The notes under the pieces were generated by a model. The model was not told where the DNA came from and searched no databases. It worked only from the letters and a program-made list of their open reading frames with translations. A program made the position numbers and the translations under genes. Shown one piece after another: positions 13,541 to 31,067 of a stretch of DNA of 64,000 nucleotides. How positions within the stretch are numbered: the stretch's first letter is position 1; each line of letters starts with the position of its first letter. Source of the stretch: Microbispora sp. NBC_01189 (GTDB lineage: Bacteria; Actinomycetota; Actinomycetes; Streptosporangiales; Streptosporangiaceae); NCBI RefSeq assembly GCF_036010665.1, contig NZ_CP108581.1, forward strand, positions 751,501 through 815,500. Direction: 5' to 3'.

Positions 13541-13657
13541 GCCGGGCTCCTTAATCATCTCGACACCGAAACTGTAGGTACCCCACAACGCCACCTCCAC
13601 AAAGTTCGTTCGGATCTCCATCAGTGTGGTGAACCTCTACAGGGCAGGGTTGAGTAC
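13541..13657 (+). promoter_or_regulatory. fabD operon promoter region
   Basis: This 117-bp spacer is AT-richer than its flanks and must hold the fab promoter. CCACAA occurs twice, at 13583 and 13597 (14 bp apart), and AGGG precedes the fabD GTG. In S. coelicolor FasR binds in the equivalent spacer. The repeat is a candidate binding element, not a proven one. Confidence 0.4.
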
Positions 13658-14554
13658 GTGCTCGTCATCGTCGCTCCGGGCCAAGGCGCCCAAACCCCAG
13701 GATTCCTCAGTCCATGGCTTGAGATCCCCGCGTTCCGGGACCGAATCTCCGCGTGGTCCGACATCGCGGGGCTCGATCTCGCGTCGTACGGGACGACCGC
13801 CGGGGCCGACGAGATCCGTGACACCGCCGTGGCCCAGCCGCTGCTGGTGGCGGCGGCCCTGGCGGCCTTCGAGACGCTGGGCGTACGGCCCGGCCTGGTC
13901 GCCGGGCACAGCGTGGGCGAGTTCGCCGCCGCCGTGGTCGCCGGGGTGCTGACCTCCGAGCAGGCCATCGCCCTGGTGCGGGAGCGCGGGATGGCGATGG
14001 CCAAGGCCGCCGCCGTCACGCCGACCGGCTTGAGCGCGGTGCTCGGCGGCGCGGAGGACGAGGTCCTGGCCGCGCTGGACAGGCACGGCCTCACCCCCGC
14101 GAACATCAACGGCGCGGGCCAGATCGTCGCGGGAGGCACGCTGGAGCGCCTGGAGGCGTTCGCGGCCGACCCGCCGGCCAGGGCGCGGGTGCGCTCCCTG
14201 GCGGTCGCCGGAGCCTTCCACACCGTCCACATGGCCCCCGCCGTGGATCATCTGCGCGCCGAGGCCGCGACCGTCACCCCCGCCGAACCGTCGGTCACGC
14301 TGCTGTCCAACGCCGACGGCGCGGCGATCACCGCCGGGGGCGAGTTCCTGGAGCGGCTGGTGACCCAGGTCGCCAGCCCCGTTCGGTGGGACGCCTGCAT
14401 GGCGACGATGGCCGAGCGGGGGGTCACCACCATGATCGAACTGCTGCCCGGCGGCACGCTGACGGGCCTGGCCAAGCGCGCCATGCCCGGCGTCCGGACG
14501 GTCGCGCTCAAGACCCCCGCCGACCTCGACACGGCCCGGGAGGTGCTGGGATGA
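13658..14554 (+). CDS. fabD: Malonyl-CoA:ACP transacylase
   Basis: This 298-residue enzyme moves malonyl from CoA to the acyl carrier protein, supplying extender units for fatty acid synthesis. The nucleophile motif GHSVGEF places Ser85 in the active site, and GAFHTVHM near residue 187-194 carries the catalytic histidine. APGQGAQTPGFL at the N-terminus is typical. Length is normal. The start is GTG at 13658 after AGGGCAGGG. Its stop overlaps the fabH start (ATGA), so the two are translationally coupled. First gene of the fabD-fabH-acpP-fabF-accD run. Confidence 0.96.
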   Translation: MLVIVAPGQGAQTPGFLSPWLEIPAFRDRISAWSDIAGLDLASYGTTAGADEIRDTAVAQPLLVAAALAAFETLGVRPGLVAGHSVGEFAAAVVAGVLTSEQAIALVRERGMAMAKAAAVTPTGLSAVLGGAEDEVLAALDRHGLTPANINGAGQIVAGGTLERLEAFAADPPARARVRSLAVAGAFHTVHMAPAVDHLRAEAATVTPAEPSVTLLSNADGAAITAGGEFLERLVTQVASPVRWDACMATMAERGVTTMIELLPGGTLTGLAKRAMPGVRTVALKTPADLDTAREVLG

Positions 14555-15507
14555 GACTCGGCCAGGGCGCGCCCGCCGCGCGGATCCTCGCGTTCGGCGG
14601 CTACCAGCCCGCGCAGGTCGTCACCAACGACGACCTCGCCGCGCGGCTCGACACCAACGACGAGTGGATCCAGAGCCGCGTCGGGATCAAGGAGCGCCGA
14701 ATCGCGGGGCCGCAGGAGTCGGAGATCGACCTCGCGGTCCAGGCGGGCGGCAAGGCGCTGGCCGCCAGCGGCCTGTCGAGCGACGACATCGACCTGGTGA
14801 TCGTGGCGACCTGCACGACCGAGGCGCCCATCCCCAACGCCGCCGGCCGCGTCGCCCACCGGCTGGGCATCACCGCGCCCGGCGCCTATGACCTGAACGC
14901 CGCCTGCGCCGGGTTCTGCTACGCCCTGGCCGCCGCGTCCGACGCCGTACGGACGGGGTCGGCGACCAACGTGCTGGTGGTGGGCAGCGAGAAGCTCAGC
15001 CAGTGGGTCGATCGCGACGACCGGTCGACCGCCGTCATCTTCGCGGACGGCGCGGGCGCCGTCGTCGTCGGCCCCTCCGACCGGCCGGGCATCGGCCCGG
15101 TGGCCTGGGGCAGCGCCGGCGACAAGGCCGACGCGATCATGATCAAGGACCGGAACTCCTTCCTCCACCAGGAGGGTCAGGCGGTGTTCCGCTGGGCCAC
15201 GACCACCCTTCACCCCGTGGCCATGCTGGCCTGCGAGCGTGCCGGCGTGGACCCCGCCGACCTGGCCGCCTTCGTCCCCCACCAGGCGAACCTGCGGATC
15301 GTCGAGGCCATCGCCCGCAGGATCGGCGCCGGCAACGCCGTCGTCGCCAAGGACATCGTGCTCGCCGGCAACACCTCGGCCGCGTCCATCCCGCTCGCGC
15401 TCTCCCGCATGATCGAGCGCGGCGAGATCGCGTCGGGCGGCCTGGCCCTGCTGCTGGGCTTCGGCGCCGGCCTCACCTACGCCTCCCAGGTGATCGAGAT
15501 CCCCTGA
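14551..15507 (+). CDS. fabH: 3-oxoacyl-ACP synthase III
   Basis: This 318-residue ketosynthase condenses a starter acyl-CoA with malonyl-ACP to begin fatty acid synthesis. The catalytic triad is complete: Cys119 (LNAACAGFCYAL), His244 (PHQANLRI) and Asn274 (LAGNTSAAS). In actinobacteria FabH usually prefers branched or acetyl starters; which is used here cannot be told. The start ATG overlaps the fabD stop by 4 bases. The frame is open further upstream, inside fabD, but without FabH similarity. Confidence 0.96.
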   Translation: MRLGQGAPAARILAFGGYQPAQVVTNDDLAARLDTNDEWIQSRVGIKERRIAGPQESEIDLAVQAGGKALAASGLSSDDIDLVIVATCTTEAPIPNAAGRVAHRLGITAPGAYDLNAACAGFCYALAAASDAVRTGSATNVLVVGSEKLSQWVDRDDRSTAVIFADGAGAVVVGPSDRPGIGPVAWGSAGDKADAIMIKDRNSFLHQEGQAVFRWATTTLHPVAMLACERAGVDPADLAAFVPHQANLRIVEAIARRIGAGNAVVAKDIVLAGNTSAASIPLALSRMIERGEIASGGLALLLGFGAGLTYASQVIEIP

Positions 15508-15585
15508 GAGACCCCGTACGGCCCGCCGTACGGATCTGGGGCGACCCAGACGAACCAGGAAAACACAACAAGGAGAAGTCGCGAC

Positions 15586-15825
15586 ATGGCACTGACCGAG
15601 CAGGAGATCCTCGCGGGCCTCGGCAAGATCGTGAACGAGATCACCGGCATCCCGGCCGCGGAGGTCACCCCGGAGAAGAGCTTCGTGGACGACCTCGACA
15701 TCGACTCGCTCTCCATGGTCGAGATCGCCGTCGCGGCCCAGGACGAGTTCGGCGTCGAGATCCCCGACGACCAGCTCAAGCACCTGAAGACCGTCAAGGA
15801 CGTCATCAGCTTCATCCAGAACTGA
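15586..15825 (+). CDS. acpP: Acyl carrier protein
   Basis: This 79-residue acidic carrier protein holds growing acyl chains on a phosphopantetheine arm. The attachment motif is DDLDIDSLSMVEI with Ser41 as the modified residue. Helix one starts TEQEILAGLGKIVNEITG, as in other ACPs. An AAGGAG Shine-Dalgarno sequence precedes the ATG. It lies 78 bases after fabH and 90 bases before fabF in the operon, the order seen in Streptomyces. Confidence 0.97.
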   Translation: MALTEQEILAGLGKIVNEITGIPAAEVTPEKSFVDDLDIDSLSMVEIAVAAQDEFGVEIPDDQLKHLKTVKDVISFIQN

Positions 15826-15915
15826 ACCACCGGACGTGCCCTGCCCGCGCCACCGGGAGCGGCCGGGCATGTCTGGTCCCTTCACGCCCCGAACAGCAAG
15901 AGGAGTGCAGACGAA

Positions 15916-17148
15916 GTGAGTAAGGACCGGGTACGTGTCGTGGTCACCGGGCTCGGCGCGACGACGCCCCTCGGTGGAGACGTCGCATCGACCTGGTCGG
16001 CGCTCCTCGAGGGGCGGTCGGGCATCCGCCCGCTCACCGAGGACTGGGTCGACTCCGTGCCGGTGAAGTTCGCCGGTGTGGCGGCCGTCGATCCGGCCGA
16101 GGTCCTGCCGCGGCCGGAGGCCCGCAGGCTCGACCGCAGCGAGCAGTTCGCGCTGATCGCCGCCCGCCAGGCATGGCAGGACGCGGGTGCCCCCGAGGTG
16201 CCCGCCGAGCGGCTCGGGGTCTGCGTCTCCAGCGGCATCGGCGGCATCGGCACGACGCTGTCGGCCTACGACACCTTCAAGGAGCGGGGCTGGCAGCGGC
16301 TGTCGCCGTTCACCGTGCCCATGCTGATGCCCAACGGCCCGGCGGCCTGGGTGGGCCTCGAACTGGGGGCCAGGGCCGGCGTCCACGCCACCGTCTCCGC
16401 CTGCGCCTCCGGCGCCGAAGCCATCGGGTATGCGCTGGACATGATCCGCGCCGGGCGGGCGGACATCGTCGTGGCGGGCGGCACGGAGGCGGCGATCCAC
16501 CCGCTGAACGTGGCGGCCTTCGCGGCGGCCCGGGCCATGTCGACCCGGAACGACGAGCCCGAGCGGGCCTCCCGTCCCTGGGACCGCGGCCGTGACGGCT
16601 TCGTCCTCGGTGAGGGCGCCGGCCTCGTCGTGCTGGAGTCGTACGAGCACGCGGTGGCCCGCGGCGCCCGGATCTACGCCGAGGTGGCGGGCCTCGGCCT
16701 GTCCGCCGACTCCCACCACATCACCCAGCCCGAGCCCGAGGGCCGGGGGCTCGTCACGGCGATGACCCAGGCCCTGACCGACGCCGGGCTGACCGGGCGC
16801 GACATCCTGCACGTCAACGCGCACGCCACCTCCACCCCCGCGGGCGACGTGATCGAGGCCCAGGCGGTCGAGAAGTCGTTCGGCTCGCACGTCCTCGTCA
16901 CCTCGACCAAGTCGATGACGGGGCATCTGCTCGGCGGCGCCGGCGGCATCGAGTCGGTCTTCACGATCAAGACGCTGGCCGAGCGGCTGATCCCCCCCAC
17001 GATCAACGTGGACGACCTGGACGACGGCATCGGCGTCGAGATCGTGTGCGACAAGCCGCGCGACCTGCCCGAGGGGCAGATCGCGGCCGTGAACAACTCC
17101 TTCGGGTTCGGCGGCCACAACGTCGCCGTGGCCTTCACGACGGTTTGA
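15916..17148 (+). CDS. fabF: 3-oxoacyl-ACP synthase II
   Basis: This 410-residue elongating ketosynthase condenses acyl-ACP with malonyl-ACP. The Cys-His-His active site is complete: Cys163 (TVSACASGAEAIG), the histidine in NAHATSTPAGD and the histidine in TKSMTGHLLGGAGG. The N-terminal VVVTGLGATTPLGG is typical of KAS II. The GTG start follows AGGAG. In mycobacteria this slot holds kasA and kasB; here a single FabF is present. Downstream accD begins after 14 bases. Confidence 0.96.
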   Translation: MSKDRVRVVVTGLGATTPLGGDVASTWSALLEGRSGIRPLTEDWVDSVPVKFAGVAAVDPAEVLPRPEARRLDRSEQFALIAARQAWQDAGAPEVPAERLGVCVSSGIGGIGTTLSAYDTFKERGWQRLSPFTVPMLMPNGPAAWVGLELGARAGVHATVSACASGAEAIGYALDMIRAGRADIVVAGGTEAAIHPLNVAAFAAARAMSTRNDEPERASRPWDRGRDGFVLGEGAGLVVLESYEHAVARGARIYAEVAGLGLSADSHHITQPEPEGRGLVTAMTQALTDAGLTGRDILHVNAHATSTPAGDVIEAQAVEKSFGSHVLVTSTKSMTGHLLGGAGGIESVFTIKTLAERLIPPTINVDDLDDGIGVEIVCDKPRDLPEGQIAAVNNSFGFGGHNVAVAFTTV

Positions 17149-17162
17149 CAAGGGAGTCTCGA

Positions 17163-18635
17163 ATGACTGTGCTCGACAGCGGGACGACGGCCGACAGAAG
17201 GACGACGGCTGACGGCGCGACCGCGGCAGCCAGGGAGACGGCGCCCGCGACCGCCGAAGCGGCGGCCGTCGACTCTCGCGACCCCCTGGTGCGCCTCGGT
17301 CACCTGCTGGACGAGGACTCGATCCGGCGGATCACCCCCGAGGACGGGAGCGGCGTGCTGGCCGTGACCGGACGGGTGGACGGCGTGCCGGTCGTGGCGT
17401 TCTGCAGCGACGCCCGCATCCAGGGCGGCGCCATGGGCGCGGAGGGCTGCGAGCACATCGTCCACGCCTACGACGTGGCCGTCCGCGAGCGGGTGCCGGT
17501 CATCGGCGTCTGGCACTGCGGCGGCGCCCGCCTCGCCGAGGGCGTGGAGTCGCTGCACGCCGTGGGCCGGGTGTTCGCGGCCATGACCAAGGCGTCCGGC
17601 GTCGTGCCCCAGATCTCCGTCGTCGTCGGCCCGGCGGCCGGCGGCGCCGCGTACGGACCGGCCCTGACCGACATCGTGATCCTGGCCGACAACGGCCGCA
17701 TCTTCGTCACCGGGCCCGACGTCGTCCGCAGCGTCACCGGCGAGCAGATCGACATGGCCGCCCTGGGCGGCCCGGAGCCGCACAGCAAGCGCAGCGGAGT
17801 CGTCCACGTCGTCACGAAGGACGAGCCCGAGGCCCTGCTGAAGGCCCGCCAGCTCGCCGGCCTCCTCGGTCACCAGGGCCGGATGCGCGAGGTGGACGAG
17901 GTCGACTTCAGTGCCGTGCTCCCCGAGAACCCGCGCCGCGCGTACGACGTCCATCCCCTGGTCAAGGGCCTGCTCGACGAGCCCGGCGTGGAGCTTCAGC
18001 CCAAGTGGGCGCCGAACATCGTGACCACCCTGGGCCGGCTCGGCGGCCGCACCGTCGGTGTCATCGCCAACAACCCCATGCGGCTCGGCGGCTGCCTCGA
18101 CTCCGCGTCGGCCGAGAAAGCCGCCCGGTTCGTCCGGATGTGCGATGCCTTCGGGGTTCCTCTGATCGTGCTGGTGGACGTGCCGGGCTACCTCCCCGGC
18201 GTCGGACAGGAGCACGACGGCGTCGTCCGGCGCGGCGCGAAGCTGCTGCACGCCTTCGCCGAGGCGTCCGTGCCCCGCGTCACGCTGATCACCCGCAAGG
18301 CGTACGGCGGGGCGTACATCGCGATGAACTCCCGCTCGCTCGGCGCGACCCGCGTGTTCGCCTGGCCGACCATGGAGGTGGCGGTCATGGGCGCGGTCGC
18401 GGCGGTGCGGATCATCAAGCGGCGCGAGATCGCCGCCGTGCCGGAGGAGGAGCGGGCCGCGCTGGAGGCCCGGCTGGCCGAGGAGCACGAGAAGGCCGCG
18501 GGCGGCCTTCAGCGCGCCATCGACCTCGGCGTGGTCGACGAGGTCATCGAGCCGGCCAAGACGCGCGGCGCGATCGCCCGGGTGCTCGCGCAGGCCACCC
18601 CGGCCCGCGGCGCGCACGGCAACATCCCGCTCTGA
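17163..18635 (+). CDS. accD: Acyl-CoA carboxylase, carboxyltransferase beta subunit
   Basis: This 490-residue subunit transfers CO2 from biotin to acetyl- or propionyl-CoA, giving malonyl- or methylmalonyl-CoA for the synthases upstream. The first 40 residues are low-complexity (Thr/Ala-rich). The carboxyltransferase core has FCSDARIQGGAMG with the oxyanion-type glycines, VVGPAAGGAAYGPAL and ITRKAYGGAYIAMNS. The ATG at 17163 follows AAGGGAG, 14 bases after fabF. Its place matches accD6 at the end of the M. tuberculosis fabD-acpM-kasA-kasB cluster, so malonyl-CoA supply is the likely job. A biotin-bearing alpha subunit must come from elsewhere. Confidence 0.92.
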   Translation: MTVLDSGTTADRRTTADGATAAARETAPATAEAAAVDSRDPLVRLGHLLDEDSIRRITPEDGSGVLAVTGRVDGVPVVAFCSDARIQGGAMGAEGCEHIVHAYDVAVRERVPVIGVWHCGGARLAEGVESLHAVGRVFAAMTKASGVVPQISVVVGPAAGGAAYGPALTDIVILADNGRIFVTGPDVVRSVTGEQIDMAALGGPEPHSKRSGVVHVVTKDEPEALLKARQLAGLLGHQGRMREVDEVDFSAVLPENPRRAYDVHPLVKGLLDEPGVELQPKWAPNIVTTLGRLGGRTVGVIANNPMRLGGCLDSASAEKAARFVRMCDAFGVPLIVLVDVPGYLPGVGQEHDGVVRRGAKLLHAFAEASVPRVTLITRKAYGGAYIAMNSRSLGATRVFAWPTMEVAVMGAVAAVRIIKRREIAAVPEEERAALEARLAEEHEKAAGGLQRAIDLGVVDEVIEPAKTRGAIARVLAQATPARGAHGNIPL

Positions 18636-18645
18636 TCGCTTCTTG

Positions 18646-18677
18646 TGAGCGCCGGCCCCCGATCACGGGGACCGGCG
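18646..18677. terminator. Two-way terminator between accD and DUF3145 gene
   Basis: AGCGCCGG (18646-18653) pairs with CCGGCGCT (18670-18677), with inner CCCCG/CGGGG pairs around an ATCA loop. It sits 10 bases after accD and between convergent genes, so it can end both transcripts. Confidence 0.85.
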
Positions 18678-18709
18678 CTTCCGCGTCTCCGCGGGGTCGG
18701 ACGGCGGGG

Positions 18710-19207
18710 TCAGACGGCGGCGTGCAGCCAGCGGACCGGGGCCCCCTCGCCCGCGTAGCGGAACGACTCGAGCTCCTCGTCCCACTGCTTGCCGAGCAGG
18801 CGGTCGAGTTCGTCCTCCAGGACCACCCGGCCCTGGGCCGCCATCAGCATGACGTTGCGTAGCCGGTCCTCGGGGACCAGGATGTCGCCGTTCGCGCCGA
18901 CGACGGCCGTGAAGGCCCCAAGCGTCGGCGTGTAGGCGTGCCGGGATCCGTCGACGCCCGGCGAGGCGTCTTCGGTGATCTCGAAGCGGATGCGCTGCCA
19001 GCCCATGAGCGATGACGTGATCGCCGCGGCGGTGCCGGGACGGCCCTCCCACTCCGCCTGGGCCCGCAGGGTCCCGGGCGCGGCGGGCTGGGCGGTCCAC
19101 GTCAGGTCGACGGGAACGCCAAGAACGCCTGCGACGGCCCACTCGATATGCGGGCACAGCGCAGGCTGAGCCGAGTGGACGTACAGGACGCCACGAGCAG
19201 CAGCCAC
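18710..19207 (-). CDS. DUF3145 family protein
   Basis: This 165-residue protein belongs to DUF3145, an actinobacterial family of unknown function. The family start RGVLYVHSAQPALCPHIEWA and the segment MGWQRIRFEITEDAS are clear. The GTG at 19207 is chosen because GGGAGG lies 4-5 bases before it, and it gives the usual family N-terminus. The gene is often found next to the fab operon in actinobacteria, as here, in convergent orientation. No catalytic motif or membrane segment is visible. Confidence 0.87.
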   Translation of the reverse strand: MAAARGVLYVHSAQPALCPHIEWAVAGVLGVPVDLTWTAQPAAPGTLRAQAEWEGRPGTAAAITSSLMGWQRIRFEITEDASPGVDGSRHAYTPTLGAFTAVVGANGDILVPEDRLRNVMLMAAQGRVVLEDELDRLLGKQWDEELESFRYAGEGAPVRWLHAAV

Positions 19208-19371
19208 CGGACCTCCCAATTCGCATGAGGTGCGCCTTCCCCAACGGCCTCACGGTTTGAGATGATCACGGTTGGATGACTGTAGGAGAGACTACCGTCC
19301 GTCGCAGCCTGGCACCAGAGGGGGGTCATACCGAATGGTGCTTGGCAACTCTTTGCATTGGGAATGACACC

Positions 19372-19401
19372 TTCCGCGATCTCCCCGGAAAGATCGCGGA
19401 A
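19372..19401. promoter_or_regulatory. 30-bp inverted repeat before the subtilase/CHAT operon
   Basis: TTCCGCGATCT (19372-19382) is repeated as its exact reverse complement at 19391-19401, with an 8-base spacer (CCCCGGAA). The right arm ends 11 bases before the ATG of the subtilase gene. It can act as an operator for a dimeric regulator or as an RNA hairpin that covers the ribosome site. The only gap of size upstream of this gene is 19208-19412. Confidence 0.65.
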
Positions 19402-19412
19402 AGGCTCCGCGA

Positions 19413-20456
19413 ATGCGCACCCGGCTCATCGAGCCCGTCCCCGGGCTCCCCGCCCTCATCCGCCCCGGCGAACTGCTGACCTCCGCCCCCGCCGCCGTCG
19501 CCCGGTGGGCGCTCGCCGCCGAACCGCTCCCCGGGCCGCTCCTCAGGACGGGCCGCGGGACGGGCCGCGTCCACCGCGTACGGCTCACGCCGGACGCCGA
19601 CGTGGTCGACCTGACGGCCACGCTGCGCGACCGCGGGCACGCCGCCTCCCCCAACCACGTCCTGTCGGGCCAGCCGTTGTTCTTCGGCGGGCCCGGCGGG
19701 GCGCCCTCCCCCGCGCCGCCTCCGCCGTACGAGCCGGGGGAGCCCTGCGAGGTCACTGTCGCGGTGCTCGACACGGGCCTGGCCCCGCATCCCTGGCTGG
19801 CACGGTGGTACCACGCCGACATCGCCGAGACGCCCGACGCCGACGGTGACGGCGTGCTCGACCGGCAGGCCGGGCACGGCACGTTCGTGGCCGGGCTCAT
19901 CCTGCGGCACGCCCCCGGCGCGCGCCTGCGCGCCCTGCGCGTCCTCGACAGCGACGGGGTCAGCGACGAGGCGGCGCTGCTGGGCGCCCTCTCCGTGCTG
20001 CGCGGCGGGCCGGCCGACGTGCTCAACCTCTCCTTCGGCGGGCACACCTTCGACGACGGGCCGCCCCTGGGGCTGGCCGAGGCGCTCGCCGCCTTCCCCG
20101 CCGTCGTCGCCTGCGCCGGCAACACGGCCTCCGCACGCCCCTTCTGGCCCGCCGCCCTGCCGGGCGTCGTCGCGGTCGGCGCGCTCGACGGGGACGACCG
20201 CGCGTCCTTCTCGGCGTACGGGCCCTGGGTGGACGTGTGGGCGCCCGGCGTCGGGCTCGTCAGCAGCTTCCTGGAACACCGCGACTTCCACGGCTACGCC
20301 TCCTGGAGCGGCACGTCCTTCGCCGCCGCCGCGGTCTCCGGCGCGGTTGCCCGCCTGTGCCGGGAGGTTCCGCCCGATCAGGCCGTACGGCGCCTGCTGC
20401 GGGACGGCCGGCGGGCCGGGGATCTCGGGGTGGTCGTGATGACCGGGGATCGATAG
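19413..20456 (+). CDS. Cytoplasmic subtilisin-like (S8) serine peptidase
   Basis: This 347-residue subtilase has a complete triad: Asp120 (VAVLDTG), His155 (GHGTFVAG) and Ser302 (WSGTSFAAA), plus the oxyanion asparagine in ACAGNTAS. Residues 1-110 look like a propeptide-type domain (PNHVLSGQPLF) followed by a Pro-rich linker. There is no signal peptide or membrane helix, so it should act in the cytoplasm, which is unusual for a subtilase. It is the first gene of a same-strand run with an ECF sigma factor, a small two-domain protein and a TPR-CHAT protease. An inverted repeat lies just before its start. The likely role is regulated cleavage within that system. Confidence 0.9.
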   Translation: MRTRLIEPVPGLPALIRPGELLTSAPAAVARWALAAEPLPGPLLRTGRGTGRVHRVRLTPDADVVDLTATLRDRGHAASPNHVLSGQPLFFGGPGGAPSPAPPPPYEPGEPCEVTVAVLDTGLAPHPWLARWYHADIAETPDADGDGVLDRQAGHGTFVAGLILRHAPGARLRALRVLDSDGVSDEAALLGALSVLRGGPADVLNLSFGGHTFDDGPPLGLAEALAAFPAVVACAGNTASARPFWPAALPGVVAVGALDGDDRASFSAYGPWVDVWAPGVGLVSSFLEHRDFHGYASWSGTSFAAAAVSGAVARLCREVPPDQAVRRLLRDGRRAGDLGVVVMTGDR

Positions 20457-20502
20457 GGTTTCGGTCACCATTCGCATTCCCCCGAGCGCGAAGAGTGACA
20501 AA

Positions 20503-21024
20503 ATGTCGACAGACGACTCGTTCGCCACCATCGACCAGGCCAGCTGGGAGGACCTGGTCGCCCGGTTCGACGGCAGGATGTGGGCGGTCGCGCGGGCGTT
20601 CGGGCTCAGTGCCGCCGACGCCGCCGACGCGGTGCAGTGCGCCTGGCTCCGGCTCGTGGAGAACGCGGGCGCCATCCGCGACCCGGCCCGGATCGGCGCC
20701 TGGCTCATCACCACCACCCGGCACGAGGCCGCCCGGCTCAGCCGCAGGGCCCGTGGTGAGGTGGTCGCCGACCTGGACGTGCCGGACACGGCGCAGCCCG
20801 ACCCGACGGCGGCCGTGGTCGACGCCGACTTCGGCAGGCAGGCGTGGCGGCGGCTCGACCTGCTCGGGGAGCCCTGCCGCTCGCTCATCCGCCTCTACGT
20901 GCTGCATCCCGAGGCGAGGTACGCCCAGATCGCGGTCCGGCTCGACCTGCCGGTCGGCAGCATCGGGCCCACCCGGGCCCGGTGCATGTCACGGCTGCGC
21001 GCGCTGATGGAGGAACCGGAGTGA
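20503..21024 (+). CDS. ECF-type RNA polymerase sigma factor
   Basis: This 173-residue sigma factor has region 2 (about residues 10-70; the DAADAVQCAWLRLVENA core) and region 4 (about 115-170; RYAQIAVRLDLPVGSIGPTR as the HTH). No region 3 or C-terminal extension is seen, so it is an ordinary ECF size. It lies 46 bases after the subtilase gene. A TAGGGT box overlaps the subtilase stop codon (20454-20459) and could be an internal promoter. No classical anti-sigma factor with a zinc motif or membrane helix is adjacent. Control by the neighbouring small protein and proteases is inferred. Confidence 0.88.
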   Translation: MSTDDSFATIDQASWEDLVARFDGRMWAVARAFGLSAADAADAVQCAWLRLVENAGAIRDPARIGAWLITTTRHEAARLSRRARGEVVADLDVPDTAQPDPTAAVVDADFGRQAWRRLDLLGEPCRSLIRLYVLHPEARYAQIAVRLDLPVGSIGPTRARCMSRLRALMEEPE

Positions 21025-21095
21025 GCGAGAACCGGGTCCGCCCCGCGTGGCGGCCGTGTGGAAGCGGGACGACGAGGCACGAGGAGCGCCGTTGA
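21021..21095 (+). CDS. Possible 24-codon bridging ORF
   Basis: GTG at 21021 overlaps the sigma-factor stop (GTGA). The frame runs 24 codons (VSENRVRPAWRPC, then basic residues) and stops with TGA at 21093-21095, which overlaps the TTG start of the next gene (TTGA). This would let ribosomes be handed from the sigma gene to the next gene. The peptide itself need not have a function; no similarity is recognised. It may also be chance. Confidence 0.3.
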   Translation: MSENRVRPAWRPCGSGTTRHEERR

Positions 21096-21652
21096 GGGAC
21101 GAATACCTGCTCGCGGCCCTCCGCATGGGGGCGGGCGCCGACCCCGTGCCCGAGGGGGTCTCGGCCGCGGCCCGGGCGGTGTTCCATCTGCGCGTGCCCG
21201 GAGGGGTGCCCGCCGGGCCGGTGGACCTCGCCGCGCCGCCCGGAGCGCGCTCCTCCCCCGCGTCCGGCACCTCGTCCGGCACCTCGTCCGGCACGGATGC
21301 CGCGGCCGGGGAGCCGGGCGCCGCCGGGGCGGGGGACGAGTCGTGGCGGCCGGCCGCCGCGGACGACCGGGACACCCCGGCGCACGTACGCAGGTTCAGC
21401 GCGGCGGGCCTGGTCATCGACCTGGAGACGACCATCGCCGGTGGGCGGATGGAGGTGGCCGGGCAGGTGTCCCCCGCCCCCGGGCCGGACGCCAGGATCG
21501 AGGTGCGCACCCCGCACGTCGGCAAGGTCCGCGTCCTCTCCGAGACGGGTCACTTCGCGGTCACGGGCCTGCCGCCCGGATGGGTCAGCGTGGTCTGCCA
21601 TCGACCCGGCCGACCGCCCGTCTTCACCCGCTGGCTCCGCGTGCGCCCGTGA
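21092..21652 (+). CDS. Small two-domain protein of the sigma/CHAT module
   Basis: This protein has 186 residues. The N-terminal helix region (residues 1-35; LLAALRMGAGADPVPEGVSA) resembles a motif I associate with small proteins encoded between ECF sigma and CHAT genes in other actinomycetes. A Gly/Ser/Thr/Ala linker (about 50-85) follows. The C-terminal 90 residues form a beta-rich domain with FSAAGLVIDLETTIAG and a carboxypeptidase-regulatory-like end (GHFAVTGLPPGWVSVVC). The TTG at 21092 is preferred because GAGGAG lies 5 bases upstream and it fits the motif start; GTG 21047 is also open. Its stop overlaps the CHAT gene start (TGATG). It is a candidate sigma regulator or protease substrate. 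Confidence 0.72.
   Translation: MRDEYLLAALRMGAGADPVPEGVSAAARAVFHLRVPGGVPAGPVDLAAPPGARSSPASGTSSGTSSGTDAAAGEPGAAGAGDESWRPAAADDRDTPAHVRRFSAAGLVIDLETTIAGGRMEVAGQVSPAPGPDARIEVRTPHVGKVRVLSETGHFAVTGLPPGWVSVVCHRPGRPPVFTRWLRVRP
21263..21295 (+). repeat. 12-bp coding minisatellite
   Basis: TCCGGCACCTCG occurs twice in tandem, and a third partial copy (TCCGGCACG) follows. It encodes Ser-Gly-Thr-Ser units in the flexible linker of the small protein between the sigma factor and CHAT genes. Copy number may vary between strains by slippage without a frame change. Confidence 0.7.
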
Positions 21653-24570
21653 TGTCGCGACGGCCCGCCCACCCGCCGGACCCCTCGGGACCGTGCCCCC
21701 GCCCCGGCCCCTCCCATGAGCCTCACCGAGGCCTCGACCGGCTGGTCGGCCGGGCCGAGGCGGCCGTACGGCTCTCGGGCACCGATCCGCGGCGGGCCCT
21801 GTCGGAGGCGCGGGCCGTGCTGGAGCTGACCCGGCGGGCGGAGACGGCCGGGCCGTACGGCGAGGCGGCCTCGGTGGCGCTGCGCGCGTCCGCGCTGGCG
21901 GCCCGCGAGCTGGGCGACCTGGAGCTGGCCGAGGAACGCCTGCGAGAGGCGATCGAGGCGGCGCGGGAGCATCCGCGGCGGGTGGCCCAGGCGTGGATGT
22001 CGCTCGTCACGGTCCGGGCCCAGCTCGGCGATCCCGAGGGCGGGCTGCGCCTGGCCGGCCTCGCCGAGCGGCACCTCACGGGGACCGACCTCGCGAGGCT
22101 GGACGTGCAGCGGTCGGTCGCCCTGATGCTGCTCGGGCGGCACGCGGAGGCCGTGCGGCACTGCGACCGGGCGATCGGCCCGCTGGGCGAAGATCCCCGC
22201 TTCCAGGCGGGCGCGCTGCTCAACCGCGGCCTCGCCCACGCCTACCTGGAGCGGTACGGAAGGGCCGAGGCCGACCTGGCCCGATGCGCCCGGATCGCCA
22301 GGTGCGCGGGCCTCGACCATCTCGTGATGCTGGCGGAGGGCAACCTGCCGTTCGTGGCGGCCCGCCGGGGCGACATCGCCGCGGCCTTCACACGGTACCG
22401 CGCGGCGGAGGAGACGTTGTTCGGCTTTCCCGAGCGGCTCGCCGCGATGCGGACGGACTTCGCCGAGGCGCTCGTGGCCGCCCGGCTACCCGGCGAGGCA
22501 CGCGCGCTGCTCGAACAGGCCGTGCCCGAGCTGGTGGCCGCGCAGGCGCACGCGGCGATCCCCCAGGCGCGGCTGTCGCTCGCCCAGACCGCCCTTCTTT
22601 CCGGGGACGCCCGGCTCGCCGGCGCGACCGCGCGCACCGCGTACGCGGAACTGGCCGCGCAGGGCAGGACCGCCTGGCTGCCGCTGGCCACGGAGGTCGT
22701 CCTGCGGGCCCGCCTGGCGGGCACGACCGACCGCCCACGGGACGGGTTCACCGGTCCGGCGGGCGGCTCGGCTCCCGGCGCCCCGGAAACGCCCAATACC
22801 TCGGGAACGCCCAGCGCCCAGGATGAGCCCGGCTCCCCGGAGACACCGGCCTCCCTGGAAGCACCGGGCGACGACCTGATCGCCGAACTGGTGGCCTGTG
22901 CCGACGAACTGGCTGCCTGCGGGTGGTCCGCGGCGTCTTCGGCGCTGCGGCTCACCGCCGCCGCCTCGGCCGTACGGCTGGGCGCGCTCGGCCGCGCCCG
23001 CGAGCAGTTGCGGATCGCCGCCGCCACCGCGACGCGCCCACTCGTCCGCTGGCACGCGGTGGCCCTGCGGCACCACCTGGACGGGGATCTGGCCCAAGCC
23101 CTGGCCGCCGCCGCCCGCGGCATCGAAGCCACCCGTCCGGGGAGCGGCGCGGACGCCGAGACCAGCGGCGACACGGCCCTACAGGCAGGAACCATCCACC
23201 GTGCGGGAGCCGGGAGCAGTGGTGGCGCGGTTCCGCCGGCAATCACCGGCCGGACAGCGGGCGGCGCGGCTTCGGAGGACGTTCGCGCGCCTGAGCGGGA
23301 CGCGGAGCTGCGGGCCCACGCCGCACGGCCCGCCGAAGATCTCGCTTCGTTTGGCCTGGAGATCGCCATCGACCATGCCCGCCGCACGGGCGACGCCTGG
23401 GCCGTGCTGGAGTGGTCGGAGCGGTGGCGGGCAGTCGTGCGCGGCGCACCGCCGCCGCTCCCGCCGCTTGAGAACCGCTCGGAGCGCCCGCCCGAGATTC
23501 CAGCCGGGACATGTGCTGCGACCCGGGCTGGGACGCGGCGCGAGATCCAGCCCGAGCCCGCGCGCCTGTCCGTGCCTCTGCCCGTGCCTCTGCTCGGGGA
23601 CCGGCGTGCCGGGGCCGGGCTCCTCGTCGAGCTGGTGCGGCGTGGTGACGAGTTGTTCGCCGTCACCGCCGCCGCCGGCGGGTGCGCGCTGCGCGCCCTG
23701 GGCTCCTATCAGGCGGCGGTGGAGGCGACCAAGCGGATCCGGTACGGCCTGCGCCGCCGCGTCCTGCGCGACGCCGGTCATCCGGCGGGCGCCGACGACG
23801 CGGCGGTGGCCCTCGAACTGTCCGCCCTCGACCGGCTGCTCCTGAGCGGTCCCGGCACGCTCGCCTCTCCGGGCTCTCCGGGGCAGGGGGCGGCCGGGCC
23901 GGTGACGATCGTGCCCACCGGTGCGCTGGGCACGCTGCCCTGGCCGCTGCTTCCCTCGTTGCGCGGACGGCCGGTGTCGGTCGCGGCGGACGCCGCCCGA
24001 TGGGTCGCCCCGGCCCCCGCTCCGCCCGGCGGCGATCCGCTGGTGCTGTCGGTGGCGGGCCCGGGGCTCGACCACGCCGCCGCCGAGGCCGCGATGGTCG
24101 CCGCCGCGCATCGGCGGGCGCGGCGCGTCGGCGCCTCCAGGGCGGAGGTGCTGCGCGCGCTGGAGCGGGCCGACGTGCTCCACGTCGCCGCCCACGGGCT
24201 GTTCAGCCCGCGCGGGCCCATGCTGTCGCACATCACGCTGGACGACGGGCCGCTCATGGCCTACGACCTGCTGACCGCGCGCCGGATGCCCCGGCTCGTC
24301 ATCCTGTCGGCCTGCGACGCCGGGATGGCGCACGCGCCGGTGGACGGCGCGGTGCTGGGACTCGCGGGGACCTTCCTCGACCGGGGCGCGGCGTGCGTGG
24401 TCGCCGGAGTCGTGCCGGTCCGCGACGACGAGGCCCCGGCGCTGATGACGCTTCTCCACACACTGCTGGCGGACGGCCGCTCCCCCGCCGAGGCGCTGGC
24501 CCTGGCGTCGGAGAAGACGGCCGTGCCGGGTTTCGTCTGCTTCGGCGACGGCCGCCTCGGCCCGGGATGA
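21652..24570 (+). CDS. TPR-CHAT caspase-like protease
   Basis: This 972-residue protein has TPR-like helical repeats (about residues 20-350; for example QAGALLNRGLAHAYLERYGR), a disordered Pro/Gly/Ser/Thr linker (about 360-410), more helices, a second poor linker and a C-terminal CHAT domain (about 650-970). The caspase-type dyad is intact: His848 in LHVAAHGLFS and Cys888 in LVILSACDAGMA. The fold is that of separase/caspase relatives such as Csx29. The ATG overlaps the preceding stop by 1 base. The TPR part should sense a partner; the CHAT part should cut a protein. No transmembrane helix is seen. The target is unknown. Confidence 0.9.
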   Translation: MSRRPAHPPDPSGPCPRPGPSHEPHRGLDRLVGRAEAAVRLSGTDPRRALSEARAVLELTRRAETAGPYGEAASVALRASALAARELGDLELAEERLREAIEAAREHPRRVAQAWMSLVTVRAQLGDPEGGLRLAGLAERHLTGTDLARLDVQRSVALMLLGRHAEAVRHCDRAIGPLGEDPRFQAGALLNRGLAHAYLERYGRAEADLARCARIARCAGLDHLVMLAEGNLPFVAARRGDIAAAFTRYRAAEETLFGFPERLAAMRTDFAEALVAARLPGEARALLEQAVPELVAAQAHAAIPQARLSLAQTALLSGDARLAGATARTAYAELAAQGRTAWLPLATEVVLRARLAGTTDRPRDGFTGPAGGSAPGAPETPNTSGTPSAQDEPGSPETPASLEAPGDDLIAELVACADELAACGWSAASSALRLTAAASAVRLGALGRAREQLRIAAATATRPLVRWHAVALRHHLDGDLAQALAAAARGIEATRPGSGADAETSGDTALQAGTIHRAGAGSSGGAVPPAITGRTAGGAASEDVRAPERDAELRAHAARPAEDLASFGLEIAIDHARRTGDAWAVLEWSERWRAVVRGAPPPLPPLENRSERPPEIPAGTCAATRAGTRREIQPEPARLSVPLPVPLLGDRRAGAGLLVELVRRGDELFAVTAAAGGCALRALGSYQAAVEATKRIRYGLRRRVLRDAGHPAGADDAAVALELSALDRLLLSGPGTLASPGSPGQGAAGPVTIVPTGALGTLPWPLLPSLRGRPVSVAADAARWVAPAPAPPGGDPLVLSVAGPGLDHAAAEAAMVAAAHRRARRVGASRAEVLRALERADVLHVAAHGLFSPRGPMLSHITLDDGPLMAYDLLTARRMPRLVILSACDAGMAHAPVDGAVLGLAGTFLDRGAACVVAGVVPVRDDEAPALMTLLHTLLADGRSPAEALALASEKTAVPGFVCFGDGRLGPG

Positions 24571-24572
24571 GG

Positions 24573-25436
24573 TCAGCCGGTCGCGACGGGCCTGCCGGGG
24601 TCGGCCACCCAGTTGGACCACGAGCCGGCGTACAGGGCGGCGGGCAGTCCGGCGATCTCCAGTGCCAGCACCTCGTGCGCGGCCGTCACCCCCGACCCGC
24701 AGTAGGCCCCGACGGGCACGCCCTCGACGGCCCCCAGCGTGTTGAACCGCTCCCGGAGGAACGACCCGCTGTGGAACCGCCCGCCGGGTTCGACGTTCTC
24801 GGAGGTGGGGGCGCTGACCGCGCCGGGGATGTGACCGGCGACCGGGTCGACGGGCTCCACCTCGCCCCGATACCGCTCGGCCGCCCGCGCGTCGAGCAGC
24901 ACGCCGTCGGCCGCGAGCGCGGCCGCCTGCCCGGCGTCGAGCACCGGCATCCCGCCGGGCCGGGCGGTGAAGTCTCCCGGCGGCACCGGCCCCTCCTCCT
25001 TGGAGACCGGGAGCCCGGCCCGGGTCCAGGCCCGCAGGCCGCCGTCCAGCACGCGGACATCGCCGTGGCCGAAGTATCGCAGGGTCCACCACGCCCGGGC
25101 GGCCGACGTCGAGTCGGCGTCGTCGTACACGACCACCGGGCGCGCGCCCGACACCCCGAGGCGGCGCATGGCCGCGCCGAAATCCTCGGGAGAGGGCAGC
25201 GGATGCCGCCCGGCCGGGCCGGGCGGGGCGGCGAGATCGGCGTTCAGGTCGCAGAAGACCGCGCCGGGCACGTGCCCCTCACGGTACGACTCGATGCCGG
25301 GCGGCCCGCCGAGCCGCCAGCGGACGTCGAGGATCGTGACGCCGGCGAGCGCGGCGAGTTCCACGGGAGTGATCAGCGGGCCGTGCTGCCCGCCGCGCTG
25401 CTCCCCGATCCGCTGTTCCCCGACTCGCTCGCTCAT
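24573..25436 (-). CDS. Sulfurtransferase, two rhodanese domains
   Basis: This 287-residue enzyme moves sulfur from thiosulfate or 3-mercaptopyruvate to an acceptor. The N-terminal inactive rhodanese domain begins LLDVRW-like (TILDVRWRLGG) and includes GHVPGAVFCDL. The C-terminal domain carries the active cysteine at about residue 246 in YCGSGVTAAH. That CGSGVTA loop is typical of SseA/mercaptopyruvate-type enzymes. AGGAGG lies 6 bases before the ATG. It converges on the CHAT gene with a 2-base gap. Substrate preference is not certain. Confidence 0.9.
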   Translation of the reverse strand: MSERVGEQRIGEQRGGQHGPLITPVELAALAGVTILDVRWRLGGPPGIESYREGHVPGAVFCDLNADLAAPPGPAGRHPLPSPEDFGAAMRRLGVSGARPVVVYDDADSTSAARAWWTLRYFGHGDVRVLDGGLRAWTRAGLPVSKEEGPVPPGDFTARPGGMPVLDAGQAAALAADGVLLDARAAERYRGEVEPVDPVAGHIPGAVSAPTSENVEPGGRFHSGSFLRERFNTLGAVEGVPVGAYCGSGVTAAHEVLALEIAGLPAALYAGSWSNWVADPGRPVATG

Positions 25437-25557
25437 GAGACCCCTCCTGGCCGGTACGGTGGCACAGCCAATTGTGCCAAGCCGTCGCCACCGCCCGGCC
25501 TCACGCGGTACTCCGCGGTGGCAGCGGTTTGATCTGGTACGGGTGCCTTTCGCTGCT

Positions 25558-26250
25558 ATGGTCGCGCGAATGCGATCGAGTTACCTCGCCTGGGGCGATG
25601 CGGTGGACCTGTTCGAGCGGCGCGGGCTGCCGAAGGGAACGTACGAGAACCTGTACGAGGAGGAGTACATCCTTGTGCCGGGTCCCGCCGCGGTGACCGG
25701 CGAGCTTCCCCTCGACGAGCACGAGCGGACGCCGTGGCGGGAGGGCACGCCCGAAGCGGCCACCGGGTACGTCGTGGACGGCGACCTGGTCGTCGACGGC
25801 AACATCACCGATGTGGACGACGGGGCCGCCGCGCTGATCGTCCTCGGGAACCTGCGGGCGAGGAACATCTACCTGGCCGGTGACGCGAAGCTGGTTGTGC
25901 ACGGCCATGTGACGGCTGAGACCTTCGTCGGCGACATGACCGACAAGCTGGTGATGATCCACGGGGACCTGCGCGCCACCGTCTCGATCTTCTGGAACGA
26001 GTTCTGCCCCGACCTGGTCGCCGGCACCCTCCATGGCAGGACCCTCGCCCCCGCCTACCTCGACCTGTCCACGGCCCCCATCGGCTGTCTCGCCGACCCG
26101 GCGCCCGAGGCCCCGCTCAGCCGCCTCCTCGTGCCCGAACTGCTGGTCACCGGCGCCCCCGGCCCCGACGACCTCACCAAGATCGGCATCCGCGGCGACG
26201 CCCTGCGTGACCGCCTGCTGGGCGGCCTTCCCCTCACCACGACCCCCTGA
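25558..26250 (+). CDS. Probable beta-helix protein of unknown function
   Basis: This protein of about 230 residues is not one I can name. From residue 60 on it has short valine- and aspartate-rich strands in regular succession (VVDGDLVVDGNITDVDDG, then LVVHGHVTAETFVGDMTDK). This pattern suggests a right-handed parallel beta-helix like polymer-forming cytoskeletal (bactofilin-like) proteins. The N-terminus is charged and has no signal peptide. ATG 25558 and ATG 25570 are both possible; neither has a clear Shine-Dalgarno sequence. It stands alone between two leftward genes, so it has its own promoter in the 120 bases upstream. Confidence 0.65.
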   Translation: MVARMRSSYLAWGDAVDLFERRGLPKGTYENLYEEEYILVPGPAAVTGELPLDEHERTPWREGTPEAATGYVVDGDLVVDGNITDVDDGAAALIVLGNLRARNIYLAGDAKLVVHGHVTAETFVGDMTDKLVMIHGDLRATVSIFWNEFCPDLVAGTLHGRTLAPAYLDLSTAPIGCLADPAPEAPLSRLLVPELLVTGAPGPDDLTKIGIRGDALRDRLLGGLPLTTTP

Positions 26251-26311
26251 CCCCCGGCGAGCCGCTCTCGAGAAGGCGAGATCCCGGCGCGGTTCACCGA
26301 TCGGTGACCGG

Positions 26312-27520
26312 TCAGCGGCGGATCTCCAGGAGCGGCACGTTCTGCTCGGCCGGGGTCAGCGATCCGTGGTAGCCGGTCAGGGACGACTCCACCGGCTCGG
26401 CGGCCGAGGCCACGATCACGCACTCGCCGTACGGCACCGCCAGCACGTCGCCGATGCGGCCGAGCCACTCGCGTCGGACGCGGTGCCCGAACCAGCCGGT
26501 GTCGGCGGCCTCTTCGCGGGTCACCACCCAGGCGCGCCCGCGCAGCGCCTCGCGCCAGGTCTCCAGGACCCCCGCCGCCGCGCCCGGCCTCGTGTAGACG
26601 TGGCGGGCGCGGGCCTCGCCGCCGAGCATGAGCACGCCTTCCCGCAGGTCGGGGCGGAGGTCCACGTCGACCTTGTCCGTGGCATTGATCATGCCGTGGT
26701 CGGCCGTGACGTACAGGACGGCTCCCGGCGGCAGGGACTCCGCGATGCGTTCGGCCATACGGTCGACGACGGCGAGCTGTTCGAGCCACGCGCCGCCGCC
26801 CCAGCCGCCGACGTGGCCGGCCCGGTCGACGTCGCCGTAGTAGACGGTGACGTAGGAGGTCTCCCGCAGCGCGTGCCGCACCGCCTCGACACGCTCGCCG
26901 GCGGTCTCCGCCGCCCAGTAGCGCATGCCCCGATAGACCGCGCGGGTGAGTCCGGTGCCGTCGAAGGAGGCGGGCGCGACGTAGACGGGATCCACCCCCG
27001 CCGCGGCCATGCGCTGGTAGACGGTCTCGGCGGGCTGCCAGACGTCGGGGTCGACGGGCAGGCCGGGGGCGGTCCAGCGCAGGCAGTTGAACAGCCTGCC
27101 CTCTCCCGGCACCGCCATCTGGATCCCCATCATGCCGTGCTCCCCCGGAGGCGCGCCGGTGCCGAGCGTGGCGAGGCTCGTCGGGGTGGAGGACGGGAAG
27201 CCCGCCGTGAGCGTGCCGCGCAGGTGGGCCGACAGGAACGGCGCCGTTCCGGGATGGGCGGCCAGCATCTCGGCCCCGAGCCCGTCCACGAGGAACAGGC
27301 ACACCCGCGCGGCCGGCTCCAGCGCCAGCGTGTTGTCCGTGGACAGGCCGAGGGAGGCGAGCATCGAGCCCGGCAGGTCGGCGAGCGAGGCCGTGCCGTA
27401 CGCGGGCACGTACGGCACGGCCGGCGGCCCCTCGGCGACGGCCCCGAAAGCCTCGGACGCCCCGCCGGATGCCGCCCCGGGCGTCCCGCGCGACGCCGCT
27501 GGAAGCTGGGGATCGATCAC
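26312..27520 (-). CDS. Alkaline phosphatase superfamily phosphodiesterase
   Basis: This 402-residue protein is of the nucleotide pyrophosphatase/phosphodiesterase type. Metal-site motifs are present: LVDGLGAEML (first Asp), TSLATLGTG region with the nucleophilic Thr, YYGDVDRAGH and TADHGMI. The first 50 residues are Pro/Ala-rich and probably disordered. GGGAGG precedes the GTG start. There is no signal peptide, so it should be cytoplasmic. It lies next to the DUF5998 gene, a pairing I know from other actinomycetes. The substrate is unknown. Confidence 0.87.
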   Translation of the reverse strand: MIDPQLPAASRGTPGAASGGASEAFGAVAEGPPAVPYVPAYGTASLADLPGSMLASLGLSTDNTLALEPAARVCLFLVDGLGAEMLAAHPGTAPFLSAHLRGTLTAGFPSSTPTSLATLGTGAPPGEHGMMGIQMAVPGEGRLFNCLRWTAPGLPVDPDVWQPAETVYQRMAAAGVDPVYVAPASFDGTGLTRAVYRGMRYWAAETAGERVEAVRHALRETSYVTVYYGDVDRAGHVGGWGGGAWLEQLAVVDRMAERIAESLPPGAVLYVTADHGMINATDKVDVDLRPDLREGVLMLGGEARARHVYTRPGAAAGVLETWREALRGRAWVVTREEAADTGWFGHRVRREWLGRIGDVLAVPYGECVIVASAAEPVESSLTGYHGSLTPAEQNVPLLEIRR

Positions 27521-27640
27521 GTTGCCTCCCGGCGGGACGAAGAGGGGGACGGCGTCGGGGAGTGCCCGCCGGCTCCCCTGCGTGACGGGACGTTCCTCAG
27601 GCGGCGTTCTCCTGGACGGTTGACCTCTCAGACGGTCCTC

Positions 27641-28219
27641 TCAGATGGTGGCCTCGGACAGCGCCTTGGCGAAGGCCAGCACATGACTGACGGCCTCCGG
27701 CCCGTCGGCGGCCTCGCTGACCCGCAGCGACAGGTCGTCGGCGGTGATCGCGCCGGTGTAGCCGTGGTCGGCCTCGCAGTTCTCGTCGCCGCAGGTCGCC
27801 GGTTCGAGGTCGACGTGTGAGATCGCGCCCCATCCGATCGTCAGCGTGACCTCCGTGGGGGAGGTGCCCGGCGCGTACGACGCGGGGTCGGGCACGACTC
27901 TGGTCACGGCGACCGACTGGATGCGGCTGAGCCGCACCGCCTCCGTGGTGGTGGAGGCGTGCGAGGCGGGCATGCCCTCCGCCGGCGGATGCTCGTCGGT
28001 GTGGCAGACCAGCAACCGGGTGGGTGACAGGACCAGCACCGTGACGTGCCTGCGCACCTCCATCGCCGGGTCGAACGTCGCCTCGTGATGCACGACGTAC
28101 GCCGTCACCTGCTCGCTGCCGAGTGCGGAGTCGACGGCGTCGGCCACCAGATCCGGGTAGTAGCCGCTGCGATCTATGGCCTCGCGCAAGCCCGCGGCGG
28201 AGACTCGGGTTTCCCTCAT
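27641..28219 (-). CDS. DUF5998 family protein
   Basis: This 192-residue actinobacterial protein matches DUF5998. It starts RVSAAGLREAIDRSGYYPDL and has a long beta-rich core (VRRHVTVLVLSPTRLLVCHT; VTLTIGWGAISHVDLEPA). CGDENCEADHGYTG contains a Cys-X4-Cys-like pair and His that could bind metal. The frame is open upstream to 28375, but the ATG at 28219 gives the family start and has GGCAGGA before it. The next gene downstream is the phosphodiesterase, 120 bases away on the same strand. The function is not known. Confidence 0.82.
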   Translation of the reverse strand: MRETRVSAAGLREAIDRSGYYPDLVADAVDSALGSEQVTAYVVHHEATFDPAMEVRRHVTVLVLSPTRLLVCHTDEHPPAEGMPASHASTTTEAVRLSRIQSVAVTRVVPDPASYAPGTSPTEVTLTIGWGAISHVDLEPATCGDENCEADHGYTGAITADDLSLRVSEAADGPEAVSHVLAFAKALSEATI

Positions 28220-28376
28220 GGGTCCATCCTGCCCTGTAAGGGACACCTGTTTCACACCCCGGCGGGACGGGTTTTCCGTCCGCGCCGCGCCGCACGCCCT
28301 CCGGGCCCCGCTTTCCCGCGCCCTTCCCGCAGGGGAGTACGTCAGCCGCCCGCCGTGCTCCCGAGCGCTCGCCACG

Positions 28377-31058: not shown

Positions 31059-31067
31059 GCACCCGAG

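What the first reader, a model, noticed from the sequence alone, without database searches (positions are those of the whole stretch)
19372..24570. Candidate signalling or conflict module: cytoplasmic subtilase + ECF sigma + small adaptor + TPR-CHAT protease
Four genes on one strand, with coupled ends, combine two intact cytoplasmic proteases (S8 triad Asp120/His155/Ser302; CHAT dyad His848/Cys888) with a sigma factor and a small two-domain protein. The closest mechanistic parallel is Csx29 (TPR-CHAT), Csx30 and RpoE in type III-E CRISPR, where the protease frees a sigma factor by cutting its inhibitor. Here there is no CRISPR, so another trigger would be sensed. The hypothesis is that TPR-CHAT or the subtilase cuts the adaptor or sigma regulator after infection or damage. 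Homologous sets occur in other actinomycetes to my knowledge, but I know of no experimental function.
Basis: partly seen in the sequence, partly recalled or inferred. Interest (0 to 1): 0.85.

Follow-up and report, generated by a model that had tools for sequence, protein, structure and literature searches.

The report
Protease-controlled sigma factor switch, actinomycetes
Four neighbouring genes in a soil actinomycete appear to form an internal switch in which a caspase-like protease probably frees a gene-activating sigma factor from a small inhibitor; the set is a long-standing part of these bacteria's chromosomes, and its function has not been tested.

Summary
In detail: S8 subtilase, ECF sigma, a small protein (SMALL) and TPR-CHAT, with intact catalytic residues. 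The context is in print: a review gives carboxypeptidase-, subtilase- and CHAT-domain neighbours for group ECF54 and speaks of proteolysis without an anti-sigma factor. I found no experiment.

New here: (1) ECF-SMALL is the near-invariant pair (128 of 131 long loci); CHAT and subtilase move around it, and lie together elsewhere in 11 of 11 genomes checked where ECF-SMALL stands alone. (2) SMALL and this CHAT type co-occur (123 both, 1, 10, 259 of 393 genomes; 8 of the 10 are missed SMALLs). (3) The subtilase looks dispensable: 12 of 15 genomes with ECF-SMALL-CHAT but no linked subtilase have no homologue. (4) AlphaFold2 of a joint ECF-SMALL chain (pTM 0.74; ECF alone 0.53) gives SMALL two N-terminal helices and a sigma arrangement closest to some anti-sigma-bound structures. 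I infer that SMALL is a class-II-like anti-sigma factor and TPR-CHAT the releasing protease, as in Craspase but without CRISPR. The 'conflict' part is unsupported: the locus is vertically kept beside fatty-acid genes. Trigger, regulon and cleavage are unknown.

The parts
19413..20456 (+). SUB: cytoplasmic S8 subtilase, 347 aa, D120/H155/S302; about 110 residues precede the catalytic domain
   Evidence: Pfam PF00082 1.1e-27, residues 114-320; triad; no strong hydrophobic segment (max KD19 1.59, inside the catalytic domain)
20503..21024 (+). ECF: ECF sigma factor, 173 aa, ECF54-like context
   Evidence: Sigma70_r2 4.9e-9, no Pfam region-4 match; TIGR02937 7.1e-14 over residues 15-167
21092..21652 (+). 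SMALL: predicted anti-sigma factor, 186 aa from TTG (alternative GTG 21047 or 21056)
   Evidence: family profile found in 196 of 200 genomes of the order; predicted in complex with ECF for relative L104
21095..21193 (+). SMALL N-terminal two-helix segment (residues 2-34), proposed sigma-binding part
   Evidence: aligned to helices 223-239 and 244-258 of the L104 model; conserved positions
21248..21250 (+). codon of Arg53 of SMALL, the near-invariant Arg of the hinge between helices and beta domain; candidate cleavage or sigma-contact residue
   Evidence: column 58: Arg 99% weighted, 200 sequences, effective number 129; coordinate
21392..21649 (+). SMALL C-terminal beta-sandwich (CarboxypepD_reg-like), residues 101-186
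   Evidence: Pfam 0.0065, sub-threshold; strands 287-359 of the L104 model
21652..24570 (+). TPR-CHAT protease, 972 aa, H848/C888
   Evidence: Pfam CHAT 1.3e-27 at 724-953, TPR_8 3.4e-6; dyad; strong co-occurrence with SMALL

Best explanation
A cytoplasmic, protease-controlled ECF switch. The two N-terminal helices of SMALL clamp the sigma2 and sigma4 domains of the ECF, as class II anti-sigma factors do, and keep it off RNA polymerase (predicted). The TPR part of TPR-CHAT senses an unknown internal signal and the CHAT domain then cuts SMALL, most plausibly in the hinge between its helices and its beta-sandwich, where an Arg is nearly invariant (inferred). SMALL is thereby destabilised and sigma is released to start an unknown regulon (inferred). 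The subtilase is an accessory protease that may mature or switch off another part, or finish SMALL degradation (guess). Shown: gene set, intact active sites, co-occurrence. Predicted: the complex. Inferred: cleavage, signal, output.
For: SMALL and this CHAT type: 123 genomes both, 1 SMALL only, 10 CHAT only, 259 neither, of 393; 8 of the 10 have diverged ECF-SMALL beside CHAT. ECF-SMALL standing alone: 13 loci; of the 11 genomes checked all 11 have a TPR-CHAT with the best subtilase homologue within about 3 kb elsewhere. Subtilase absent by a blast-type search in 12 of 15 genomes with ECF-SMALL-CHAT, weak in 3. Joint chain of L104: pLDDT 87.1, pTM 0.74; the same ECF alone with the same seven ECF rows: 80.2, 0.53. 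Foldseek of the joint model: CnrH/CnrY TMt 0.73, SigW/RsiW 0.68-0.69, RpoE/NepR 0.66, polymerase-bound ECFs in the listing 0.33-0.43. Partial distance correlations over 81 loci: ECF-SMALL 0.50, SMALL-CHAT 0.42, ECF-CHAT 0.30, ECF-SUB 0.30, CHAT-SUB 0.14, SMALL-SUB 0.10. SMALL Arg 99% in a variable hinge. Precedents read in passages: Csx29-Csx30-CASP-sigma (PMC10028731, PMC9729208) and CalpL-CalpT-CalpS (PMC11417357).
Against: No binding or cleavage data. The joint chain is an artificial read-through of a TAG stop in a relative, not the window's own pair; no interdomain error matrix or coordinates were given. The fold search of the ECF-alone control never ran (server busy), so whether ECF alone is also predicted closed is unknown. 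Other anti-sigma complexes fit less well (RseA 0.48-0.51, MucA 0.42-0.45, RskA 0.45, RsbN-BldN 0.45), so 'closed' means one subset. The separase Asp that reads P1 Arg (D2151; K670 in Csx29, PMC9729208) has no conserved acidic counterpart here: the family's invariant Asp (window D925) aligns with Csx29 S666, so Arg-specific cutting has no support from the pocket. Direct coupling analysis was uninformative. Three of 131 loci have SMALL without ECF (L108, L115, L139). Fisher-type counts and distance correlations are not corrected for phylogeny, and the CHAT threshold (1e-40) was chosen after seeing the list.
Confidence: 0.55

Rival explanations
1. The proteases act on the sigma factor itself and SMALL is a delivery adaptor or scaffold; there is no anti-sigma factor. 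[quoted passage not shown]
For: PMC8999054 passages. ECF and CHAT distances also correlate (partial 0.30).
Against: SMALL raises model confidence of the ECF (sigma4 blocks 81-92 alone, 94-96 joint) and is kept beside ECF in 128 of 131 loci, as expected of a direct binding partner; neither excludes an adaptor.
Confidence: 0.2
2. The subtilase is the releasing protease and TPR-CHAT has another job, such as activating the subtilase by cutting its N-terminal part.
For: The subtilase triad is kept in all aligned rows and SUB sits beside ECF-SMALL or CHAT in many loci.
Against: No homologue in 12 of 15 genomes that keep ECF-SMALL-CHAT; lowest partial correlation with SMALL, 0.10. A diverged subtilase could have been missed, since one query was used.
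Confidence: 0.12
3. SMALL is the sensor: its beta-sandwich binds a ligand and lets sigma go without being cut; the proteases work downstream, as effectors or as off-switches.
For: The beta domain is the better conserved half (Gly, Phe, Thr, Trp columns at 93-100%).
Against: Near-obligatory company of SMALL and CHAT; the precedents work by cutting (PMC10028731, PMC11417357 passages).
Confidence: 0.15
4. The set is an anti-phage or conflict system.
For: CHAT and subtilase have weak PADLOC matches: BovA 1.7e-6, subtilase 3e-14; Csx29 is a relative.
Against: Found in 196 of 200 genomes of the order and in one syntenic place in 20 of 20 named relatives. tblastn of the CHAT protein on plasmids gave one record, 11.85 Mb long, i.e. 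chromosome-sized; of the ECF on phages one 42% match over 72% in an unannotated 7.5-kb record. SMALL was searched in neither.
Confidence: 0.1

Closest known systems
ECF54 group context (review PMC8999054, citing Casas-Pastor 2021 and Huang 2015; those two not held)
   Same: ECF with carboxypeptidase-like, subtilase and CHAT proteins conserved around it; actinobacterial example (Geodermatophilus) in the review's table
   Different: The review speaks of proteolysis without an anti-sigma factor; here SMALL is predicted to be one, and the subtilase is dispensable. Formal ECF54 membership was not testable.
Type III-E CRISPR: Csx29 (TPR-CHAT), Csx30, CASP-sigma/RpoE (PMC10028731, PMC9729208; passages)
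   Same: TPR-CHAT protease, soluble sigma inhibitor, ECF sigma; logic of cutting the inhibitor
   Different: No Cas7-11/gRAMP or repeat array beside it; NCBIfam Csx29 model 19 bits against a cut-off of 300; SMALL is 186 aa against the 565 residues of Csx30 given in PMC10028731; core chromosomal
CalpL-CalpT-CalpS (PMC11417357, passages)
   Same: Protease cuts a soluble anti-sigma factor bound to an ECF
   Different: Lon protease with a SAVED sensor and cA4 signal; here CHAT with TPRs and unknown signal
Class II anti-sigma factors CnrY and NepR (PMC7406223, PMC8103513; passages)
   Same: Two helices embracing sigma2 and sigma4; the joint model is closest to CnrH/CnrY in TMt and close to RpoE/NepR
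   Different: SMALL adds a hinge and a beta-sandwich; no sequence relation was shown

Membership tests
ECF54 group | Subtilase-, CHAT- and carboxypeptidase-type domain proteins in the gene context | tested here: met
   the carboxypeptidase-like match is sub-threshold (0.0065)
ECF54 group | Score with the ECF54 profile of the ECF classification | not testable with these tools
   profile not held; classification papers not held
Type III-E Csx29 | NCBIfam NF041237 cut-off (300 bits) | tested here: not met
   19 bits, 5.1e-4, residues 830-928
Type III-E Csx29 | Beside Cas7-11/gRAMP and a CRISPR array | tested here: not met
   No direct repeat of 23 nt or more within 120 nt in 12000-32000; RAMP matches in this genome lie about 126 kb before the window starts. 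Cas7-11 itself was not searched by its own model.
Csx30-type sigma inhibitor (works like) | Binds the ECF and is cut by the TPR-CHAT | tested here: inconclusive
   Binding predicted for a relative; cleavage not testable here
Class II anti-sigma factor | Two helices contacting sigma2 and sigma4, sigma held closed | tested here: inconclusive
CHAT protease | CHAT fold with His/Cys dyad | tested here: met
   Pfam 1.3e-27; His 133 of 134, Cys 132 of 132 aligned
Separase-like P1-Arg specificity | Asp at the D2151 position | tested here: not met
   Invariant Asp aligns with Csx29 S666, not K670; four residues on, the column is V/A/P/R; the spacing in separase is recalled

The most novel reading that the evidence does not exclude
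Most of one actinomycete order and many other members of the class carry, in the core chromosome, a CRISPR-free counterpart of Craspase: a TPR-CHAT that senses an internal signal, cuts a class-II-like anti-sigma factor in its hinge and so frees an ECF. Type III-E CRISPR would then have joined a guide RNA sensor to an older housekeeping circuit, or reached the same design independently.
Probability: 0.35. Interest if true: 0.78.

Novelty: new variant of a known kind. Interest (0 to 1): 0.6.

Why it matters
If right, protease-triggered release of an ECF from a soluble anti-sigma factor is not a CRISPR speciality but a common, vertically inherited circuit of large-genome actinomycetes (196 of 200 genomes in one order). 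It would give the ECF54 group an inhibitor, name the essential protease, and turn an annotated but unexplained gene set into a testable switch with a three-protein core that can be rebuilt in E. coli.

Tried and rejected
Rejected or dropped: (a) 'SMALL is cut after Arg because CHAT has the separase Arg pocket': the pocket Asp is not at the right place. (b) Direct coupling analysis of 199 ECF-SMALL pairs (effective number 121): pairs within and between proteins were mixed in the ranking, so I draw nothing from it. (c) Promoter footprints: a conserved block lies before SUB in 20 of 20 relatives, but it also lies before the divergent DUF3145, and no ECF-type motif was identified. (d) A four-family alignment mixing ECF-only and SMALL-only rows misplaced SMALL and was replaced by A5. 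(f) One of the 11 hits in the first phylum scan, L033, looks like a false positive: its reading shows no SMALL features. (g) Fold search with the second aligner: not ready. (h) Fold search of the ECF-alone control: server busy in all seven tries.

Literature searches covered open-access papers only; absence of experiments is a statement about those.
Full report
What is there. The window belongs to an actinomycete whose closest named relative found is Microbispora amethystogenes (L001, 92% identity in the small protein); the contig is 7.37 Mb in one piece. All four proteins lack a clear transmembrane segment.

Surroundings. Upstream lie a PucR-type regulator, fabF-type ketoacyl synthase, a carboxyl transferase and DUF3145; downstream a rhodanese and a phosphodiesterase-type protein. 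The same order holds in all 20 named relatives as far as contigs reach. This is a vertical, housekeeping place.

Distribution. With a profile of SMALL broadened by relatives (A2), 196 of 200 genomes of the order and 124 of 393 of the class have a match; the narrow profile A1 had found 11 of 296 in the phylum, one of them (L033) apparently false. Some genomes hold several copies, up to 5 in the listing. I fetched 120 stretches from the match lists. Of 131 loci with at least 5 kb on both sides, 95 have all four families, 20 lack the subtilase, 13 have only ECF-SMALL, 2 have CHAT, SMALL and subtilase without ECF, and 1 has SMALL and subtilase. The fetched set was my selection from the hit lists, not a random draw.

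Two halves that travel together. In 11 of the 13 ECF-SMALL-only cases I searched the genome: all 11 have a TPR-CHAT elsewhere whose neighbour within about 3 kb is the best or, where there are several copies, a good subtilase match. The other two (L185, L186) were not searched. Over 393 genomes of the class, SMALL (E up to 1e-3) and this CHAT type (E up to 1e-40, chosen after seeing the list) give 123, 1, 10, 259. Eight of the 10 CHAT-only genomes have diverged ECF and SMALL beside CHAT; in G257 my stretch ended before the place; in G352 only CHAT and subtilase were seen; the one SMALL-only genome (G354) shows ECF-SMALL without CHAT in a 12-kb stretch. These counts are not corrected for shared ancestry.

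The subtilase is the loose part. For 15 of the 20 ECF-SMALL-CHAT loci I searched the genome with the window's subtilase: 12 have no match at E up to 1e-3 and 3 have weak ones (2.3e-8, 4.4e-7, 3.2e-4). A diverged subtilase might be missed. So the constant core is ECF, SMALL, TPR-CHAT.

SMALL. Across 200 aligned members it has two short conserved helices, then a variable hinge with one Arg at 99% (weighted), then a beta domain with near-invariant Gly, Phe, Thr and Trp. In most Streptosporangiaceae members, the window's included, the motif following the helices elsewhere (D-A-E-L-A-x-L-x-x-D-S) is gone: a strict form of it was found in 76 of 206.

Structure. In relative L104 ECF and SMALL lie in one frame with a single TAG between them. 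Read through, with 61 relatives aligned (six of them read through likewise, 55 SMALL only), AlphaFold2 gave pLDDT 87.1 and pTM 0.74. The same ECF alone, with the same seven ECF rows, gave 80.2 and 0.53. By the pTM formula, 0.74 asks for a mean error of about 2.6-3.3 A over the 310 well-modelled residues, that is, a defined arrangement of both partners (assumes low scores for the 64 others). Foldseek places the sigma part nearest to CnrH/CnrY (TMt 0.73), SigW/RsiW (0.68-0.69) and RpoE/NepR (0.66); RseA, MucA, RskA and RsbN complexes score 0.42-0.51 and polymerase-bound ECFs in the listing 0.33-0.43. In CnrY, helix 1 binds sigma4 and helix 2 sigma2 (PMC7406223, passage). Hence the reading of SMALL as a class-II-like anti-sigma factor. 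The same search for the ECF alone could not be run (seven busy answers), so this comparison lacks its control; the pTM comparison does have one.

Who cuts what. Partial correlations of distances over 81 loci put SMALL between ECF (0.50) and CHAT (0.42), with the subtilase tied mainly to ECF (0.30); this is suggestive only. Both proteases keep their active residues. CHAT relatives of known structure are 8rot (1.8e-13) and Csx29 chains (about 4e-9). Csx29 cuts Csx30, which binds and inhibits the ECF CASP-sigma (PMC10028731, passages); CalpL cuts CalpT to release CalpS (PMC11417357, passages). Craspase sites differ between orthologs (A|S, L|D, M|K; PMC11106740, abstract passage), so a conserved Arg need not be the cut. 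The separase pocket Asp is not conserved here.

Novelty. The gene context is known for ECF54; the anti-sigma reading, the two-halves split and the dispensable subtilase I did not find in the papers searched. I therefore call it a new variant of a known kind.

Noticed in passing
window 19240-19335: Strongly conserved non-coding block (core GAGAGACTACCGTC) between divergent DUF3145 and SUB in all 20 named relatives; could belong to either gene.
   Followed up: partly
window about 20440-20460: A TAGGGT/TAAGGT-like box shortly before ECF, overlapping the end of SUB in the window, recurs in many relatives; possible separate promoter.
   Followed up: no
G000:C1:621196-625121 (L261, L262), outside the window: Three RAMP-domain (PF03787) matches, so a type III CRISPR-like locus may exist about 126 kb before the window.
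   Followed up: no
G000:C1:1372111-1372953 (L021): A second CHAT protein in this genome without ECF, SMALL or subtilase match in its 3.8-kb stretch.
   Followed up: partly
L108, L115, L139: SMALL directly after the subtilase with no ECF between or nearby.
   Followed up: partly
L145, L150, L156-L158, L162, L165, L166: ECFs whose region 4 has lost the G-S-I-G-P-T-R motif (strict form in 150 of 200 ECFs).
   Followed up: no
G714, G789 and others: Several SMALL copies per genome, up to 5; paralogous switches with possibly different signals.
   Followed up: no
window 28176-30944: A 922-aa open frame without a Pfam match up to 0.1; it may be antisense to another frame.
   Followed up: no
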